A stretch of DNA of 40,944 nt from a virus. Where the stretch lies: the IMG/VR virus record IMGVR_UViG_3300043673_000025, positions 1 through 40,944 of that record. One strand, written 5' to 3'. The notes below the pieces were generated by a model, which did no database searches, was not told the origin of the DNA, and worked only from the letters and a program-made list of their open reading frames with translations. Both the position numbers and the translations under genes were made by a program. This document shows positions 139 to 40,920 of the stretch, piece by piece (the stretch's first letter is position 1; every line of letters starts with the position of its first letter).

Positions 139-153
139 TTGCTCCCGGTGCAA
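139..153. promoter_or_regulatory. 15-bp near-palindrome, copy 1 (TTGCTCC-C-GGTGCAA)
   Basis: An odd-length near-palindrome with 7-bp arms and one mismatch. It lies just upstream of the candidate early promoter at 163-192, where an activator or repressor site would sit. The same 15-mer recurs at 21296-21310, in inverted orientation at 40906-40920, and with two changes at 1988-2002. Seen directly; the role is inferred. Positions 1-138 hold no convincing gene. Confidence 0.5.
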
Positions 154-162
154 ACTAATTAC

Positions 163-192
163 TTGACTCCACACATACTCATGCCCTATGTT
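163..192 (+). promoter_or_regulatory. Candidate sigma70-type early promoter
   Basis: TTGACT (163-168) is followed after 18 bp by TATGTT (187-192). The predicted start near 198-200 would put the stem-loop at 201-212 at the extreme 5' end of the transcript. It would drive the rightward early genes from 233. Confidence 0.5.
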
Positions 193-200
193 TGTGGAGT

Positions 201-212
201 TGGGTTCGCCCA
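201..212 (+). promoter_or_regulatory. Leader stem-loop 1 (TGGG-TTCG-CCCA)
   Basis: A 4-bp stem with a TTCG loop, then ACACCTC and an AGGAG ribosome-binding site (221-225) 7 nt before the ATG at 233. The same leader layout precedes the genes at 976 and 1309. The outer stem pair is T-A here and C-G in the other two. Confidence 0.6.
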
Positions 213-232
213 CACCTCATAGGAGACGCACA

Positions 233-937
233 ATGAGCACCTTGTTTGAACTTGATGTGCAGCCGGTTCGCACTACATCCGCACCATCCACCCAAGCCAC
301 ATTCACCTACCCCCAATCGCTGACGGCGAAGTATCGTCCTCTTACTCTTGATGGCTTCGTTGGCCTAGATGAGATCGTGGCCGACTTCCAAGACTTCGCA
401 GCGAACCCATTTCCATCCGCTTATCTGTTTTTCGGGCCATCTGGAGTAGGCAAGACTAGCCTCGCTATGGCGCTTGCTGACGCGATCCCTGCCGAGTTCC
501 ACCACATCCCATCTCAAGACTGCAATCTGGCCAACATCGAACGCGTGCGGCGCATCTGTCAGTACGTCCCGATGATGGGAAAGAAAATGCATCTGGTGTT
601 GGTGGATGAAGCCGATCAAATGACTGCCGCCGCTCAGATCTCGCTGCTCTCCAAGCTTGATGAAACAAACTTCCCACCCAACACGGTGTTCATCTTCACT
701 GCGAATGACACCGATCTGCTGGCTGATCGTTTCCTATCGCGTCTACGCCGAGTGAAGTTCTCGAAAGAGGGCATCTCTAAGGATGTGGCCGCGCACCTGG
801 CGCGCATCTGGGCGCTTGAGGTTGGCGATGCGACCGCTCCCAACTTCGCGACCATCGTGAAAGAGGCCAAAAACAACATCCGCGAGTGCCTTATGGAGTT
901 AGAGAATCGCATCCGTCGCGCACGTCGCACCAAATAA
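233..937 (+). CDS. Clamp-loader-like AAA+ ATPase (RFC/DnaX type)
   Basis: This 234-residue AAA+ ATPase resembles a small subunit of a sliding-clamp loader, which opens the clamp and places it on primed DNA. After a disordered N-terminus comes the KYRP..LDGFVG motif (about 33-44), typical of RFC/DnaX/RuvB proteins. Walker A is GPSGVGKT (68-75), Walker B is VLVDEADQ (about 122-129), sensor 1 is TAND (about 156-159), and SRLRRVKF (169-176) corresponds to the SRC/arginine-finger region. The ATG at 233 is chosen over 188 because AGGAG lies 7 nt upstream and follows the shared leader hairpin. It is shorter than cellular clamp-loader subunits and lacks an obvious collar domain. No phage clamp or DNA polymerase is seen, so it may act with host proteins. 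A RuvB-like or Holliday-junction role is a weaker alternative. Confidence 0.85.
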   Translation: MSTLFELDVQPVRTTSAPSTQATFTYPQSLTAKYRPLTLDGFVGLDEIVADFQDFAANPFPSAYLFFGPSGVGKTSLAMALADAIPAEFHHIPSQDCNLANIERVRRICQYVPMMGKKMHLVLVDEADQMTAAAQISLLSKLDETNFPPNTVFIFTANDTDLLADRFLSRLRRVKFSKEGISKDVAAHLARIWALEVGDATAPNFATIVKEAKNNIRECLMELENRIRRARRTK

Positions 938-3940: not shown

Positions 3941-4167
3941 GATTTGGTCCTCACCTCATAGCTATCGATGCAGCTCTTGTTGCTGCAAAGTGGAATCTCT
4001 TTATTCACCCACCAACACGGTCCATCCGGCAACGTGCAGGCGTTTGAATCAGTGCAGCCGCACACCACACATATCGCCTCGATCTTGTCGGCCTTCGCGG
4101 ATCGGGTGACTATGAGAGGCGGCGTTGCCATTTTGAGTTTGAACATGGTTTCTTTATTTTTTTTCAT
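3937..4167 (-). CDS. Small Cys-rich protein (CxxCGCTDSNAC...CWWV)
   Basis: A 76-residue protein. After a basic N-terminus it has CVVCGCTDSNACTLPDGPCWWV (about 33-54) and LCSNKSC (about 60-66), with five to six cysteines spaced for one or two zinc sites. The 'GCTD..AC....CWWV....LCS.C' signature is widespread in phage proteins as a tail domain or, as here, a free-standing protein. Function unknown. It couples the previous small protein cluster to the helicase loader (ATGA both sides). Confidence 0.75.
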   Translation of the reverse strand: MKKNKETMFKLKMATPPLIVTRSAKADKIEAICVVCGCTDSNACTLPDGPCWWVNKEIPLCSNKSCIDSYEVRTKS

Positions 4168-4991
4168 CGCTTCCCTTTCACCCGGTAGTCATCCCCGGCC
4201 ATCTCTACCACCTGGCACATCTGTTGCAACCGCGAGTGCATTCTCGCGCCGATCCGGTCGCCCAGGGTGTCGCCGCGCACTGCCGGCACACTGCGCCCGT
4301 ACTCGCTCACCACGGCCATCGTCGCCGGCGCAGTGTTCGGCAAATTCGTGGTGATGATGGTGGAGCGCTTGTCGTTGTAGCGGCCATTGATAATGCGCTC
4401 GACAGCATCGAACGTCCAGTCGGTGGCCTGCACCGCGCCCAGCTCGTCGAGCACGACGACGTCGGCCGCGAAAAGTGGATCCAGAATCTCGGCCTCGCTC
4501 ATACTCCGGTCGCCAAACGTCCGCTTCACCCGGTTCAGCAGGTCGCGGAAGTCGGCAAAGATGCCTTTGGCTCCCTTCTCCAGCACAACTTTGCGCAGGA
4601 TGCCCACGGCCAGGTGCGTCTTGCCGATGCCCACGGTCCCCACAAGCAACAGGCCGCGCCCGTCCGTGCCGATGGGGTACTCTTCGACGAATCGCCGCGC
4701 TGTGGCCAAGCCATGGCCTAGCGAGGGGTGTCCTCCTATCGCGTCGTAGCTATCAAGTGTGGCCTGGCGGTACCGCTCGGGGATCTTCGCGACCTCCAGC
4801 TTGCGCGCGATCCGCTTCTGCGGAATACAAACACACTCGCGGGCCATCCGGTTGCCCTTGTCGTCGGTCAGGACGATGTGCCCGCTACCTCCGCAAGTGC
4901 AACTCCCCAGCCCTGGGGCTAAGTCCACGGCTGGGGGTGCGAACGAAGGCAGCAGGCTATCGAGCATTCTATTTACATCGTCACGCTTCAT
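4164..4991 (-). CDS. DnaC/IstB-like helicase loader ATPase
   Basis: This 275-residue AAA+ ATPase should open and load the host replicative helicase (DnaB) at the phage origin. An N-terminal Cys pair set (CTCGGSG about 31-37 and CVCIP about 53-57) resembles the zinc site of DnaC/DnaI-type loaders. Walker A is GTVGIGKTH (118-126), Walker B is VVVLDELG (178-185), and sensor 1 lies in ITTNLP (about 213-218), followed by a DRIGARMHSRL arginine region. The length fits DnaC/DnaI. No phage helicase is seen, so the partner is probably the host DnaB. Together with the DUF1376-like initiator at 39.3 kb it outlines a theta-type initiation pathway. IstB, a transposase helper, is unlikely because no transposase is present. 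Confidence 0.88.
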   Translation of the reverse strand: MKRDDVNRMLDSLLPSFAPPAVDLAPGLGSCTCGGSGHIVLTDDKGNRMARECVCIPQKRIARKLEVAKIPERYRQATLDSYDAIGGHPSLGHGLATARRFVEEYPIGTDGRGLLLVGTVGIGKTHLAVGILRKVVLEKGAKGIFADFRDLLNRVKRTFGDRSMSEAEILDPLFAADVVVLDELGAVQATDWTFDAVERIINGRYNDKRSTIITTNLPNTAPATMAVVSEYGRSVPAVRGDTLGDRIGARMHSRLQQMCQVVEMAGDDYRVKGKR

Positions 4992-21292: not shown

Positions 21293-21772
21293 CTATTGCT
21301 CCCGGTGCAATGGGTTATCTTGGGTCTTGTACGTCGCGAGACTGGTAATCCTATGGATAAGCTCGTCGGGCGCACTGTCGAAGGCAAGGCGTCTTTTCGC
21401 GAAAGCGATGAGCGGCGGGTTCGTCGAGCGGAAAAGGATCTCGTGAAAAGCGGCACCCTGAGCTCCGGCCCGCAACCACTGGAATCCCTCGCGCATGGCA
21501 TCCGCTGTCCGCTCCCGTTGGTGCATCGTCTCGTCGGGGCCGAACTGGATGTCGAGGCGCATCACCCGCGTCATCTTGATATAGAGAACGACATGCCCAA
21601 ACTCGTCTTCGAGCGCGAAGCATTCCATTCCCTCCCGATCGACACAGAAAAACTCAGGCTTCACCTTGTCGCGGTGGTCGGGGTCGCCCTCGATCCAGAC
21701 CGCCAGGAGATCCCGGTCGCGCTCGGTCGCGGGCCGCAAGGTGTAATTGCCGATGCGAATCGGTTTGTTCAC
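21293..21772 (-). CDS. GNAT-fold-like protein (tail/ejection assembly)
   Basis: A 159-residue protein with the strand-helix pattern of a GNAT acetyltransferase: IGNYTLRPATERDRDLLAVWI (about 6-26), a central FALEDEFGHVVLYIKMTRVMRLDIQF sheet (about 51-77) and a TNPPLIAFAKRRLAF ending (about 116-130) like the GNAT 'N..si.ly.k.GF' motif. The acetyl-CoA-binding Q/RxxGxG/A loop is not obvious, so it may be a structural relative. T7-like phages have a comparable GNAT-like protein just before the ejection genes, which fits its place here. The final codons (HREQ, stop) lie in the 15-bp near-palindrome at 21296-21310. Confidence 0.65.
   Translation of the reverse strand: MNKPIRIGNYTLRPATERDRDLLAVWIEGDPDHRDKVKPEFFCVDREGMECFALEDEFGHVVLYIKMTRVMRLDIQFGPDETMHQRERTADAMREGFQWLRAGAQGAAFHEILFRSTNPPLIAFAKRRLAFDSAPDELIHRITSLATYKTQDNPLHREQ
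21296..21310. repeat. 15-bp near-palindrome, copy 2
   Basis: Identical to the element at 139-153 (TTGCTCC-C-GGTGCAA). It lies at the very end of the GNAT-like gene, 30 nt before the next start, so it is partly coding. Role unknown. Confidence 0.5.
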
Positions 21773-37883: not shown

Positions 37884-38148
37884 TCGGGGTCTCCTGGGGC
37901 GTCTTCTTTTTCGGGCCTGGCTTCTTCGGTTGCCACGCGGGATCTGTTTCACGCCGCCACCGCAGGAACATAGTACGTTCTTCGGGTGTGCTGGGACGCG
38001 CGCACTGTCGACATACCTTTTCGTCGCGGTGAGAGCGCCGGATCGCCTTCAGTTTCTTCTTACATTCGTCGCTGCAGGTAACAGCCTTCTTAATCGTGCG
38101 GTCGAGGCCGATTTCACTCTGGCAAACAATACAGAACATGGATTCCAT
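37858..38148 (-). CDS. Small Cys-rich (zinc) protein with basic tail
   Basis: A 96-residue protein: CIVCQSEIG...AVTCSDECKKK is a compact zinc motif (CxxC ... CxxxC) of the kind that ends many bacterial and phage small proteins; VCRQCARPSTPEERTMFLRWRRETDP adds another CxxC. The C-terminus is Lys/Pro-rich (WQPKKPGPKKKTP), suggesting nucleic-acid contact. ATG 38148 overlaps the previous stop (TAATG). It follows the VRR-NUC-like nuclease and could assist it. Not recognised further. Confidence 0.65.
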   Translation of the reverse strand: MESMFCIVCQSEIGLDRTIKKAVTCSDECKKKLKAIRRSHRDEKVCRQCARPSTPEERTMFLRWRRETDPAWQPKKPGPKKKTPQETPNEHAALEG

Positions 38149-38636
38149 TAGCGTTTTTTCACTCCATACTCTTTGAACCACTCCATGAGCTGCTCACACG
38201 AGTCCGTAACGCACAGATACCCCGCGCCGATCGACGTCACCCAAGTTTGAAAGTTTTTCTGTTCTGCCGTCAGTACACCGCTTCCCGATTTTGCTTCCAC
38301 CCACAGCGGAACGGTGCAATTCATCATCACCGCCTTCGTCTCACCCTTCGGAATCACCTTGACGTGTACCGTAGGCTGCAACAGCAGATCAGCCATGCCG
38401 CTGCGATGTAGAAATCCATTCGCATCGGTCCATTCCCCGACAAAAAAGGGACGTTCCTTGCCGTCTACTCCGGGTACGCGAAACATTCGCGACTGCATTC
38501 GTAGAACGGGAACATTGAATAGGGCACAGACATCCTGCACGGCCCTGACAACTCCATTACCTGCTGCACTAGCTCTACTCAACTCGATACCCCCGGTTTG
38601 ACTTTGCTTCTCAGTAAGGATACATCTTGTATCCAT
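38148..38636 (-). CDS. VRR-NUC-like nuclease
   Basis: A protein of 162 residues from ATG 38636, or 144 from TTG 38582. It has the VRR-NUC/PD-(D/E)xK layout: GMADLLLQP (catalytic Asp), VPLWVEAKSGSG (the E-x-K core strand), LTAEQKNFQTWVTSIGAGYLCVTDS (the conserved Gln and 'G....v' strand). Such phage enzymes act on structured or branched DNA, for example as resolvases. The start is uncertain: ATG 38636 overlaps the start of the divergent gene at 38635, while TTG 38582 has GGGGG about 7 nt upstream and leaves a divergent promoter gap. It heads the leftward block 38.6-36.8 kb. Confidence 0.7.
   Translation of the reverse strand: MDTRCILTEKQSQTGGIELSRASAAGNGVVRAVQDVCALFNVPVLRMQSRMFRVPGVDGKERPFFVGEWTDANGFLHRSGMADLLLQPTVHVKVIPKGETKAVMMNCTVPLWVEAKSGSGVLTAEQKNFQTWVTSIGAGYLCVTDSCEQLMEWFKEYGVKKR
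38598..38626 (+). promoter_or_regulatory. Candidate promoter of the RHH gene
   Basis: TTGACT (38598-38603), exactly 17 bp, TACATC (38621-38626). The -35-to-GGATACA distance is the same as in the 8.55 kb promoter. A start near 38633-38635 would give a nearly leaderless message for the gene at 38635. The -10 is weak (3/6). Confidence 0.5.
38618..38634. promoter_or_regulatory. Palindromic operator candidate (GGATACA-TCT-TGTATCC)
   Basis: Perfect 7-bp arms with a 3-bp centre, ending at the base before the ATG of the RHH gene and overlapping its -10. It also overlaps the 5' end of the divergent nuclease frame. GGATACA is the element found twice, in direct orientation, in the 8.55 kb promoter. An autoregulatory site is the natural reading. 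Confidence 0.6.
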
Positions 38637-38871
38637 GAAAGCAAAGAAAAAAGCACCCCCTCCAGCCGAGAAAAACATTCGTATCCGATTCAAGGATGCC
38701 GATCAAGTAGCGATGATCCGAAAGGCCGCAGAGCGCGGCGGTCTTTCGTTCAACCGTTTTGTCATCGAGGTATCTGAGCGAGTCGCCACCTCTTTGCTCA
38801 GTACAAAACCGCAGGACCCGCTCCAACTTATCAACGATGCAGTACATGAATCACTCACCAGAAAGGTCTAA
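38635..38871 (+). CDS. Ribbon-helix-helix transcriptional regulator
   Basis: A 78-residue protein with the RHH (Arc/MetJ/CopG-like) pattern: a short strand NIRIRF (about 14-19) that would insert into the major groove as a dimer ribbon, helix 1 (DADQVAMIRKAAERGGL, about 21-37) and helix 2 beginning SFNRFVIEVSERVATSLL (about 38-55). The N-terminus is Lys/Pro-rich. Upstream is the palindrome GGATACATCTTGTATCC overlapping a TTGACT-N17-TACATC promoter, so negative autoregulation is likely. The divergent nuclease operon and the 8.55 kb promoter may also be targets. It is the first gene of the rightward replication block. Confidence 0.75.
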   Translation: MKAKKKAPPPAEKNIRIRFKDADQVAMIRKAAERGGLSFNRFVIEVSERVATSLLSTKPQDPLQLINDAVHESLTRKV

Positions 38872-38874
38872 ACA

Positions 38875-39174
38875 ATGGCTTCCACCAGTGCTTTTATCGA
38901 ATTCTTTTCTTCGCAGGATTGGCTTCTCAACCCGGCGATCCGATTCTTGGAGTATCACGATCGCGGCATCTATCTGGAGCTGCTGATCTGGATGTACCAC
39001 AAGGACCTGGATGAACCGAAGATGCTCTCTCGCGGCGGGCGCGCGATCTCCAACGAAGCGATCGCGCGTCTGCTCGGCCTGGAGCTCCCAGCTTTACTCC
39101 AAGTAATCAAAACCTTCGAGACGGCGGGTTTGGTCGCCCGCCATCCCACAACCAAAGCGCTAATTCTGAAGTGA
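38875..39174 (+). CDS. Replication-initiator-related winged-helix-like protein
   Basis: A 99-residue protein: FIEFFSSQDWLLNPAIRFLEYHDRGIYLELLIWMYHKDLDE (about 6-46), then ISNEAIARLLGLELPALLQVIKTFETAGLVAR (about 58-89), a winged-helix-like pattern. The outline resembles the N-terminal domain of phage replisome organisers and of DUF1376 proteins, as in the larger gene downstream (compare RGIYLELLIWM with HGAYMLLLGEEW). The pair could be partial duplicates. It starts 3 nt after the RHH stop. Its stop codon overlaps the first iteron (39173-39187). A DNA-binding role at the origin is plausible. Confidence 0.6.
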   Translation: MASTSAFIEFFSSQDWLLNPAIRFLEYHDRGIYLELLIWMYHKDLDEPKMLSRGGRAISNEAIARLLGLELPALLQVIKTFETAGLVARHPTTKALILK

Positions 39175-39204
39175 TACTCGGAGTATTCGGATACTCGGAG
39201 TATT
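39173..39204. repeat. Iterons 1 and 2 (GATACTC-G-GAGTATT)
   Basis: Two identical 15-mers at 39173-39187 and 39190-39204, centres 17 bp apart, in the intergenic gap before the DUF1376-like gene. Each is a palindrome with 7-bp arms and a single central base, with one end mismatch. Four further copies lie inside the downstream gene. Confidence 0.8.
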
Positions 39205-39223
39205 CCAACTGTTACGATCTGCC

Positions 39224-39243
39224 ATTGCCGCTTCGGCGGCAAT
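39224..39243 (+). promoter_or_regulatory. Very stable cTTCGg hairpin
   Basis: Perfect 8-bp stem ATTGCCGC/GCGGCAAT closed by the extra-stable C(UUCG)G tetraloop. No U-tract follows, so it is not a classical terminator. It may stabilise or attenuate the initiator message, or act as DNA structure at the origin. Confidence 0.6.
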
Positions 39244-39285
39244 CTGGCAAACGTCGTCTGATCCACGGCGCAATGGCGGGGGGGG

Positions 39286-39318
39286 TCCTCTAGCTCCTCC
39301 TGCCGCCTGACTAGAGGA
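39286..39318 (+). promoter_or_regulatory. Stem that can hide the initiator ribosome-binding site
   Basis: TCCTCTAG (39286-39293) can pair with CTAGAGGA (39311-39318); the second arm contains part of the purine-rich AGAGGAAGGA site for the start at 39328/39334. This would allow translational control of the initiator. Inferred from base pairing only. Confidence 0.4.
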
Positions 39319-39333
39319 AGGAATTTAGTGTCT

Positions 39334-40473
39334 ATGCCCAAAATTGACGTTTGGATGCCGTGGTATATCGCCAGTTACATCGCCGACACCGTGAAATTGA
39401 CCAGCTTCGAGCATGGGGCTTACATGCTCTTACTCGGAGAAGAGTGGCGAAGCGGGCGCATCCCGGACAACATGACGCAGCTCGTCCGTTTGACCAGGAG
39501 CGAGTGTTTTTTGTCTCTTACTCCGAGTATCGCCCGAGTAGTGCTTGAGAATGACACACGTATGTCACACAACACGTCTGAATCGACCCAGGACGTCGTG
39601 CATCGGTGGCTTCGATCGCTTCTCGACACCTATTTCACGCTCGACGCCGATGGCTTGTGGTTCAACGCCAGGCTTGAGGAGATCCAGACAGAATGGGCAG
39701 AGAAGGCTTTCAAAAGAGTCGAAAAATCCAAGAAAGCGATCAAAGCGCGCTGGGATCGCGTTCGCGAGTTGCAGGCTCAGGAGCTCGGGAGCAAGGGCAA
39801 AAAACCGCATACTCCGAGTAAGAAACAGGGGGATACTCGGAGTATCACGCAAGAATTACTTGAACCATTCCCTTCACCTTCACCGTTATCTAGTAGTGCT
39901 TTAAAGACCTCCGCGCCGACTTCGTCGTCGCTGGGTCGCGGATCGCGACCGAGGCCGGCTTCGCGTTCGATCGCCGATCCGGTCGCGGCCCACACAAAGG
40001 GCGAAAGCGAGGCGAAAGCGACGAAAAAGGCCCTCCACGCCATTTCTGAGGCCCAGGTGATAGGGAAGGGTGCAAAAGGTGGGATCGGTGGAGCTTACCC
40101 GGCAAAGATAGCTAAATCTGGCGGCTCTGGGACGCCTAAAGATCACCTGAATCCGGTTAAGGGATCGGATGGGAGATTTGGGGTGTTTCGGGATGAGATC
40201 TTCCGGGCGTATGCCTACATGTACGACGCCGGCCTGGTGCGCTCCAGCAGTCCGAGCTGGGGGCCGAGGGAACGGAGGGAAATGAATGTATTCCTTGAAT
40301 CAAATCCGAATGTAGATTTTCCAGTGTTCAAGGCCGCGCTCTTGAACTGGTCAACCTCTGATAATGCGAATGTGGCTTCGCCACCGCATAAATGGCTGGG
40401 CAATCTTATGTCGTTCTCGATGAATCGACTTGATCGTTTCGGTCGTACTCCGAGTAAGCGTCGGGTTTATTGA
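39334..40473 (+). CDS. DUF1376-like replication initiation protein
   Basis: A 379-residue protein from ATG 39334 (GTG 39328 also possible). The N-terminal ~120 residues match the DUF1376 pattern: DVWMPWYIASYIADTVKLTSFEHGAYMLLLGEEWRSGRIPDNMTQLVRLTR, and later DADGLWFNARLEEIQTEWAEKAFKRVEKSKKAIKARW. This domain begins many phage proteins thought to start DNA replication. A disordered middle (about 155-285, Ser/Pro/Lys-rich) and a C-terminal helical domain (GVFRDEIFRAYAYMYDAGL...HKWLGNLMSFSMNRLDRFG) follow. Four iterons are embedded in the gene and are all read in the same frame (as T-P/R-S). An origin inside the initiator gene is known from lambda O. With the DnaC-like loader it would recruit host DnaB. 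Confidence 0.75.
   Translation: MPKIDVWMPWYIASYIADTVKLTSFEHGAYMLLLGEEWRSGRIPDNMTQLVRLTRSECFLSLTPSIARVVLENDTRMSHNTSESTQDVVHRWLRSLLDTYFTLDADGLWFNARLEEIQTEWAEKAFKRVEKSKKAIKARWDRVRELQAQELGSKGKKPHTPSKKQGDTRSITQELLEPFPSPSPLSSSALKTSAPTSSSLGRGSRPRPASRSIADPVAAHTKGESEAKATKKALHAISEAQVIGKGAKGGIGGAYPAKIAKSGGSGTPKDHLNPVKGSDGRFGVFRDEIFRAYAYMYDAGLVRSSSPSWGPRERREMNVFLESNPNVDFPVFKAALLNWSTSDNANVASPPHKWLGNLMSFSMNRLDRFGRTPSKRRVY
39517..39531. repeat. Iteron 3 (CTTACTC-C-GAGTATC)
   Basis: Copy of the 15-bp palindromic iteron, with the central 11-mer TACTCCGAGTA intact, in the initiator gene, followed 4 bp later by a half site (CGAGTA). It encodes L-T-P-S-I. Confidence 0.75.
39808..39846. repeat. Iterons 4 and 5
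   Basis: CATACTC-C-GAGTAAG at 39808-39822 and the fully palindromic GATACTC-G-GAGTATC at 39832-39846, centres 24 bp apart, in the disordered linker part of the initiator gene. Confidence 0.8.
40444..40458. repeat. Iteron 6 (CGTACTC-C-GAGTAAG)
   Basis: Last copy, 15 bp before the stop codon of the initiator gene, followed downstream by the A/T-rich gap 40474-40587. Confidence 0.75.
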
Positions 40474-40587
40474 GTCACCACGTTGATGCATCTTTCGTAA
40501 CTTTTTATGGGGTTTTTTCAAGAAAACGCTTGTATGTTGCTTCGATAAGTGTTCGCCTAGCATCAGAGATTTACCAGGAGGTTCACT
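40474..40587. other. A/T-rich gap, possible unwinding region or promoter
   Basis: This 114-bp non-coding gap contains runs such as AACTTTTTATGGGG, TTTTTTCAAGAAAA and TTGTATGTTGC, clearly more A/T-rich than its surroundings. It follows the iteron-bearing gene, so it could be a duplex-unwinding region. A promoter for the gene at 40588 (TATGTT as -10) is another option. Confidence 0.35.
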
Positions 40588-40905: not shown

Positions 40906-40920
40906 TTGCACCGGGAGCAA
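40906..40920. repeat. 15-bp near-palindrome, copy 3 (inverted)
   Basis: TTGCACC-G-GGAGCAA, the exact reverse complement of the copies at 139-153 and 21296-21310. It lies 10 nt after the last stop. In a circular molecule the 40906 and 139 copies would face each other about 176 bp apart. Confidence 0.5.

What the first reader, a model, noticed from the sequence alone, without database searches (positions are those of the whole stretch)
39173..40458. Six palindromic iterons in and before the DUF1376-like initiator gene: candidate replication origin
The 11-mer core TACTC-S-GAGTA occurs six times within 1.3 kb (centres 39180, 39197, 39524, 39815, 39839, 40451), several as near-perfect 15-bp palindromes; I noticed no other full copy elsewhere. 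Copies 3-6 lie inside the gene and all in one codon phase (T-P/R-S), so the repeat has been kept against coding drift. Lambda O carries its origin iterons inside its own gene, and this phage also has a DnaC-like loader. Inference: the DUF1376 protein, or the 99-residue protein before it, binds these sites.
Basis: partly seen in the sequence, partly recalled or inferred. Interest (0 to 1): 0.78.

Follow-up and report, generated by a model that had tools for sequence, protein, structure and literature searches.

The report
Phage replication origin inside initiator gene
Short mirror-image DNA repeats inside and next to a phage gene are very probably the landing sites for that gene's own protein, which starts copying of the phage genome, and the same built-in layout recurs, with other repeat sequences, in DUF1376 genes of many unrelated phages.

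Summary
The six exact TACTC-S-GAGTA palindromes are real, confined to 39175-40456 of the 40,944-bp phage record, and far above chance. A collinear relative (G001) has five exact copies and one near copy, all in its last 3.5 kb, three at the same codons of its DUF1376 gene. A more distant relative (G201) has none, but carries another palindrome, ATGCT-N3-AGCAT, at the same two places in its DUF1376 gene and nowhere else; both arms changed together. Around the first in-gene site, half-sites repeat every 11 bp, in all three codon phases, inside a 29-codon insertion in the DUF1376 domain. This is family-wide: leaving out this clade, 17 of 30 DUF1376 genes hold short direct repeats exactly 11 bp apart, against 14 of 258 control genes (p=1.5e-11). 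The 99-residue protein is absent from both relatives; the ribbon-helix-helix protein does not track the motif change. Best reading: the DUF1376 protein is a lambda-O-like initiator binding helically phased iterons in its own gene, a replication origin. Binding and origin activity are inferred, not shown. The layout resembles lambda ori, but with a different initiator family, on which I found no functional paper: a new variant of a known kind.

The parts
39328..40473 (+). DUF1376 protein gene, 381 aa (GTG start; the ATG at 39334 is more likely, since both relatives begin with MPK). Proposed replication initiator and host gene of the iterons.
   Evidence: Pfam DUF1376 2.2e-10 over residues 9-57, above the curated cut-off; PHROG 'primosomal protein' 5.5e-13; relatives G001 and G201.
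39505..39591 (+). 29-codon in-frame insertion (residues 60-88) in the DUF1376 domain, between the second helix and the following helix. It holds the core iteron array.
   Evidence: Alignment A9: gap in six distant DUF1376 proteins, filled only in the three related phages; the Pfam match stops at profile column 51 of 86 here but runs through in others.
39507..39515 (+). TTTTTTGTC just before the first in-gene palindrome, also present in G001 and G201.
   Evidence: Sequence comparison.
39519..39529 (.). Palindrome copy 3 (site a), TACTCCGAGTA.
   Evidence: Exact; at homologous codons in G001 (39188), and replaced by ATGCTACAAGCAT in G201 (38765).
39525..39551 (+). Half-sites GAGTA / GAGTA / GAGAA at 39525, 39536 and 39547: 11-bp steps.
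   Evidence: The only exact 11-bp-spaced GAGTA pair in the genome on either strand; G201 has AGCAT/TGCAT/AGCAT/AGCAT/AGCAT at 11-bp steps, 38773-38817.
39810..39820 (.). Palindrome copy 4 (site b1), TACTCCGAGTA.
   Evidence: Exact; homologous in G001 at 39458 with the same 24-bp distance to the next copy.
39834..39844 (.). Palindrome copy 5 (site b2), TACTCGGAGTA, just before the PSPSP linker.
   Evidence: Exact; homologous in G001 (39482) and replaced by ATGCTCCAAGCAT in G201 (39026).
40446..40456 (.). Palindrome copy 6, last codons of the gene.
   Evidence: Exact; decayed in G001, which has a near copy just after its stop codon instead (40168).
39175..39202 (.). Palindrome copies 1 and 2 in tandem (17 bp apart), in the gap before the DUF1376 gene.
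   Evidence: Exact; no counterpart in G001, where this gap is only about 10 bp.
39431..39441 (.). One-mismatch copy TACTCGGAGAA inside the gene; status uncertain.
   Evidence: not conserved in G001.
40466..40582 (.). A+T-rich stretch after the gene, possible unwinding element or promoter region.
   Evidence: Among the least stable 60-100-bp stretches of the genome but not the least; in G001 the same place (40144-40255) also ranks, in G201 it does not. Suggestive only.
38635..38871 (+). Ribbon-helix-helix-like protein, 78 aa; conserved neighbour, considered as a rival binder.
   Evidence: Weak TacA1-like Pfam match 0.026; 47-56% identity across the three phages, no link with the motif change.
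38875..39174 (+).
   Evidence: Weak MarR/HTH matches; relatives go from the ribbon-helix-helix gene straight to DUF1376.
4164..4991 (-). DnaC/IstB-like ATPase, candidate helicase loader.
   Evidence: PF01695 1.7e-17; 63% identical homologue in G001.
188..937 (+). AAA+ ATPase resembling clamp-loader subunits.
   Evidence: PF00004 7.3e-14, PF13177 1.4e-11.

Best explanation
The repeats are iterons of a replication origin embedded in and around the gene of its own initiator. The DUF1376 protein would bind through its N-terminal winged-helix-like domain as a dimer to the palindromes and as a row of monomers to half-sites spaced one helical turn (11 bp), all on one face of the DNA. The assembly would wrap or bend the region, open nearby weak DNA, and hand a helicase loader and helicase to the opened strand, as lambda O and P do. 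Shown: the sites, their clustering, their conservation by position, the joint change of both arms in G201, the 11-bp phasing, and the same layout in many DUF1376 genes. Inferred: binding by the DUF1376 protein, melting, loader recruitment and origin activity.
For: Clustering and rarity. Same sites in G001, all within its last 3.5 kb. A different palindrome at the same codons in G201, only in its DUF1376 gene (3 exact and 2 near copies in 40 kb). DNA-level constraint: 15 of 16 identical residues in the core block use identical codons between window and G001, against 68 of 147 elsewhere, Fisher p=3e-4. Half-sites at 11-bp steps in all three phages, across codon phases. Family-wide: same-strand 7-mer pairs 11 bp apart in 21 of 34 DUF1376 genes, at most 8 in 200 synonymous-codon shuffles; without this clade and one near-duplicate 17/30 against 14/258 control genes, p=1.5e-11; at 22 bp 14/30 against 11/258, p=1.5e-9. 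Leptolyngbya phage Lbo-JY16 carries ATGCT-N3-AGCA three times in its DUF1376 gene and once elsewhere in 41.7 kb. Pseudomonas phage UFJF_PfDIW6 has exactly four CGTT-S-AACG sites in 42 kb, all in its DUF1376 gene, in pairs 11 and 22 bp apart. DUF1376 genes sit directly before a DnaC-like loader, replication protein P or DnaB gene in Rac, 683R6, PfDIW6, AH02, PfAn1, Lbo-JY16 and ctTUS972. The DUF1376 N-domain tracks the motif (64% identity where the motif is shared, 30-36% where it differs), whereas the ribbon-helix-helix protein does not.
Against: No binding, melting or replication data. No clear GC-skew turn at the site. No uniquely weak A+T-rich element common to the three phages. Some sites lie outside the gene and at non-homologous places in window and G001, looser than a compact lambda-type origin. 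About 13 of the 30 distant DUF1376 genes show no 11-bp repeats with this test. The loader gene is not beside the initiator here. The structure model is of low to medium confidence (mean pLDDT 56.6; N-domain about 70-80) and found no significant solved relative.
Confidence: 0.8

Rival explanations
1. The palindromes are operators of a phage transcription regulator (the ribbon-helix-helix protein at 38635, the 99-aa winged-helix protein, or the DUF1376 protein acting as an autorepressor) and have nothing to do with initiation.
For: Tandem copies lie just upstream of the DUF1376 gene (39175, 39192); ribbon-helix-helix proteins commonly bind short palindromes; that gene is a conserved neighbour. 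G001 has two copies in the leftward genes.
Against: Most conserved sites are deep inside the coding sequence. The 99-aa gene is missing in both relatives. Ribbon-helix-helix identity does not follow the motif change, and its probable DNA-contacting strand (EKNYRIRF) is the same in G001 and G201 although their motifs differ. In-gene phased repeats recur in DUF1376 phages in general.
Confidence: 0.1
2. The sites form a centromere-like partition or segregation array, dispersed palindromes bound by a ribbon-helix-helix protein, for a plasmid-like prophage.
For: Dispersed palindromes over 1.3-2.7 kb and a ribbon-helix-helix neighbour.
Against: No ParA-like gene among the proteins scanned (not every gene was scanned). 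The pattern is tied to the DUF1376 gene in unrelated phages.
Confidence: 0.03
3. A host-encoded regulator or a common host sequence motif explains the sites.
For: Perfect palindrome with the look of a regulator site; probable Acidobacteriota host.
Against: Not enriched in 199 Acidobacteriota genomes against the reversed control; the motif differs in the close relative G201.
Confidence: 0.03
4. A small mobile or amino-acid repeat (T-P/R-S) spreads in the gene and the DNA repeat is a by-product.
For: Several copies in one codon phase encode T-P/R-S; linkers are disordered and tolerant.
Against: Repeats also lie outside genes, half-sites occupy all codon phases, synonymous-codon shuffling removes the signal (z=7.9, 0 of 200), and both palindrome arms change together in G201.
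Confidence: 0.04

Closest known systems
Lambdoid phage origin (ori-lambda in gene O; O-P system)
   Same: Initiator gene carries its own iterons in the coding sequence, upstream of the loader gene in most relatives. Lambda has four 18-bp iterons at 39034, 39054, 39078 and 39101 inside O; O binds iterons next to an A+T-rich tract (PMC7466680). Extra iterons add amino acids, as in Stx phages (PMC7466680).
   Different: The initiator is a DUF1376 protein. Sites are 11-bp palindromes plus half-sites one turn apart, in two clusters (within the winged-helix domain and at the start of the linker) plus sites outside the gene. No clear A+T-rich tract next to them. The loader is elsewhere in this genome.
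E. coli Rac prophage ydaU-ydaV (DUF1376 plus DnaC-like), carrier of oriJ
   Same: Same initiator family and, in Rac and phage 683R6, the same order before a DnaC-like gene. MG1655 ydaU holds four GATGTTSAA copies and GTTCAAAC/GTTTGAAC repeats, with a single other GATGTTSAA in 14 kb. Rac has an active origin, oriJ (PMC3945230).
   Different: Different repeat sequence; whether oriJ lies inside ydaU was not found in the papers held.
Other phage initiators with the origin in their own gene (for example replisome organizers of SPP1 or TP901-1 type, PF09681)
   Same: From general knowledge: origin repeats within the initiator gene.
   Different: Different protein family: the window protein matches PF07120, not PF09681. 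Not compared further here.

Membership tests
DUF1376 (PF07120) proteins | Match above the curated Pfam cut-off | tested here: met
   41.2 bits against a cut-off of 30.1; the match is cut after column 51 by the insertion.
Lambda-O-type in-gene origin | Several iterons inside the initiator's own coding sequence, kept at DNA level | tested here: met
Lambda-O-type in-gene origin | Iterons in register with the DNA helix | tested here: met
   11-bp half-site steps; family-wide 11/12/22/23-bp peaks. Other spacings in the window (17, 24, 291 bp) are less regular.
Lambda-O-type in-gene origin | Adjacent A+T-rich unwinding region | tested here: inconclusive
   Weak stretches near the 3' end in window and G001, not in G201; a six-T tract beside the core site.
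Lambda-O-type in-gene origin | Initiator gene followed by helicase loader or helicase | tested here: not met
   Not in this genome (loader at 4164-4991, minus strand), but met in seven other DUF1376 phages.
Lambda O protein family | Sequence homology to lambda O | not tested
   No direct comparison was run; P0001 matched DUF1376 and no other replication protein family in Pfam.
Lambda-O-type in-gene origin | Initiator binds the iterons and replication starts there | not testable with these tools
   Needs binding assays and origin mapping.

The most novel reading that the evidence does not exclude
DUF1376, a widespread phage protein family of unknown function, is a class of replication initiators that carry their origins inside their own genes as iterons spaced one helical turn apart. 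The iteron sequence drifts together with the protein's DNA-binding domain, so each phage lineage has a private initiator-origin pair, and the E. coli Rac origin oriJ would lie inside ydaU.
Probability: 0.7. Interest if true: 0.72.

Novelty: new variant of a known kind. Interest (0 to 1): 0.62.

Why it matters
It gives a concrete function and origin location to a common family of phage genes of unknown function (5 papers in the held library mention DUF1376; the one read does so in passing), makes origins predictable from sequence in many uncultured phages, and yields a direct test in E. coli K-12 through the Rac gene ydaU. It also offers a compact case of a protein and the binding sites written in its own gene changing together.

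Tried and rejected
Host-wide motif: not enriched in 199 Acidobacteriota genomes. Paired-motif scans of viral and genome collections mostly returned unrelated arrays, many of the genome hits in Prevotella or related Bacteroidales; only the G001 contig was relevant. Protein scan of genome contigs found no prophage relative, so the host is only suggested. GC skew was uninformative. A search for a common weak unwinding element was inconclusive. Solved-structure searches by sequence and by fold found nothing significant. Programmed frameshift at the T tract was considered and dropped: the frame stays open and DUF1376 resumes after the insertion. Phage Orisa03 was fetched through a C-terminal match and left out of the later statistics because its N-domain is not DUF1376.

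Full report
Observation. The window is a whole IMG/VR virus record of 40,944 bp. TACTCSGAGTA occurs exactly six times, at 39175, 39192, 39519, 39810, 39834 and 40446, and nowhere else. Up to one mismatch there are ten matches against 0.22 expected. Among all palindromes with 5-bp arms and a 0-6-bp spacer it is the commonest, with six copies against three for the next.

Gene context. 39328-40473 encodes a DUF1376 protein, which PHROGs files next to primosomal proteins. Upstream lie a ribbon-helix-helix-like protein (38635-38871) and a 99-aa winged-helix-like protein (38875-39174). A DnaC/IstB-like ATPase lies at 4164-4991 on the other strand and a clamp-loader-like AAA+ protein at 188-937. Terminase and portal were recognised; the terminase's best match is Tunturiibacter phage Tunturi_3, which suggests an acidobacterial host.

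Relative with the same motif. IMGVR_UViG_3300044691_000460 (G001) is collinear throughout and its DUF1376 protein is about 44-51% identical. It has five exact and one near copy, all between 37516 and 40178 of 41,017 bp. Three are at homologous codons of the DUF1376 gene; the others are not homologous in position. The 99-aa gene is absent. Around the first in-gene site 15 of 16 codons of identical residues are identical, against 68 of 147 elsewhere in the gene (Fisher p=3e-4), so the DNA is kept, not only the protein.

Relative with a changed motif. IMGVR_UViG_3300036797_000049 (G201; portal 72% identical) has no copy of TACTCSGAGTA even with one mismatch. At the same two places in its DUF1376 gene stand ATGCTACAAGCAT and ATGCTCCAAGCAT, with a third exact and two near copies in the same gene and none elsewhere in 40 kb. 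GATACTCCGAGTATT has become GATGCTCCAAGCATT: both arms changed in mirror fashion, which is what recognition by a dimer would demand. The DUF1376 N-domain follows the motif (64% identity with shared motif, 30-36% with changed motif), whereas the ribbon-helix-helix protein does not (51% against 47-56%). This points to DUF1376 as the binder; with three phages it is indicative, not proof.

Fine structure. Right of the first in-gene palindrome the half-site repeats at 11-bp steps: GAGTA 39525, GAGTA 39536, GAGAA 39547 in the window; the same in G001; AGCAT, TGCAT, AGCAT, AGCAT, AGCAT at 38773-38817 in G201. This is the only exact 11-bp pair of GAGTA in the window's genome. The half-sites lie in all three codon phases, so the spacing is a property of the DNA. 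The array, preceded by TTTTTTGTC in all three phages, fills a 29-codon insertion in the DUF1376 domain that six distant family members lack. A structure model places it between helices of the N-domain and puts the second site cluster at the start of a disordered linker (residues about 163-279); confidence is modest.

Family-wide test. Thirty-five genes were collected: the three of this clade, genes from named phages, and IMG/VR loci. One (Orisa03) was dropped from the later statistics because its N-domain is not DUF1376. In a synonymous-codon-shuffle test 16 of 35 genes had z of 3.4 or more, Orisa03 and two of the three clade members included; 10 of 134 control genes did. Same-strand 7-mer pairs pile up at distances 11-12 and 22-24 and hardly in between: at 11 bp 82 pairs in 21 of 34 genes, against a mean of 5.6 pairs and at most 8 genes in 200 shuffles. 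With the finding's own clade and a near-duplicate removed, 17 of 30 DUF1376 genes have an 11-bp pair against 14 of 258 control genes (p=1.5e-11), and 14 of 30 against 11 of 258 at 22 bp (p=1.5e-9). These tests do not correct for relatedness among the 30 genes, and the control genes are long open reading frames, not curated genes.

Examples. Leptolyngbya phage Lbo-JY16 has ATGCT-N3-AGCA three times in its DUF1376 gene and once elsewhere. UFJF_PfDIW6 has four CGTT-S-AACG in 42 kb, all in the gene, in pairs 11 and 22 bp apart. E. coli K-12 ydaU holds four GATGTTSAA copies, with one other copy in 14 kb of Rac. In many genes the repeats fall in the same two places as in the window: around the helices at codons 60-75 and at the start of the linker.

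Mechanism. DUF1376 genes stand directly before a DnaC-like loader, replication protein P or DnaB helicase gene in seven phages. Together with the sites this makes the DUF1376 protein a lambda-O-like initiator and the repeats its iterons. Lambda's own iterons lie in gene O at 20-24-bp steps and are bound by O next to an A+T-rich tract (PMC7466680). Steps shown here: sites, positions, joint change, phasing, family-wide recurrence. Steps inferred: binding, strand opening, loader recruitment, origin use.

Weak points. No binding or replication data; no clear skew signal; no shared weak element; some sites lie outside the gene; the loader is distant in this genome; roughly 13 of 30 distant genes lack the signal; the host is only suggested.

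Prior work. Five papers in the held library mention DUF1376; the one read mentions it in passing. Two papers mention oriJ with the Rac prophage; PMC3945230 states that Rac has an active origin, oriJ, and neither passage read places it in ydaU. The library lacks most subscription papers, so earlier work cannot be excluded.

Noticed in passing
window 139-151, 21296-21308, 40908-40920: A second imperfect palindrome, GCACCGGGAGCAA, occurs three times (0.11 expected); two copies lie near the two record ends in opposite orientation, so they would be neighbours if the genome is circular.
   Followed up: partly
window 1 and 40944; L105 start and L107 end: Window and relative G001 are cut in the same intergenic region (between the 40588 gene and the AAA+ gene) with no end repeats found in the window, hinting at true genome ends or a shared break.
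   Followed up: partly
window 38619-38633: GATACATCTTGTATC, an imperfect palindrome just upstream of the start of the ribbon-helix-helix gene; possible autoregulatory operator different from the iterons.
   Followed up: partly
L148:1036-1779: Pseudomonas phage Orisa03 pairs a different N-domain (weak Phage_rep_org_N) with a C-terminal domain like that of the Lbo-JY16 DUF1376 protein, and also shows in-gene repeats GAACCAGCAGT at 11 bp: a possible N-domain swap on a shared initiator tail.
   Followed up: partly
L008, L010, L018 and many Prevotella contigs: Unrelated paired or tandem arrays containing TACTCGGAGTA (for example 30-bp period in L008, L010 and L018), origin unknown.
   Followed up: no
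window 38148-38693, minus strand: Conserved protein (53% identical in G001) that looks by eye like a VRR-NUC-type nuclease; Pfam gave no match.
   Followed up: no
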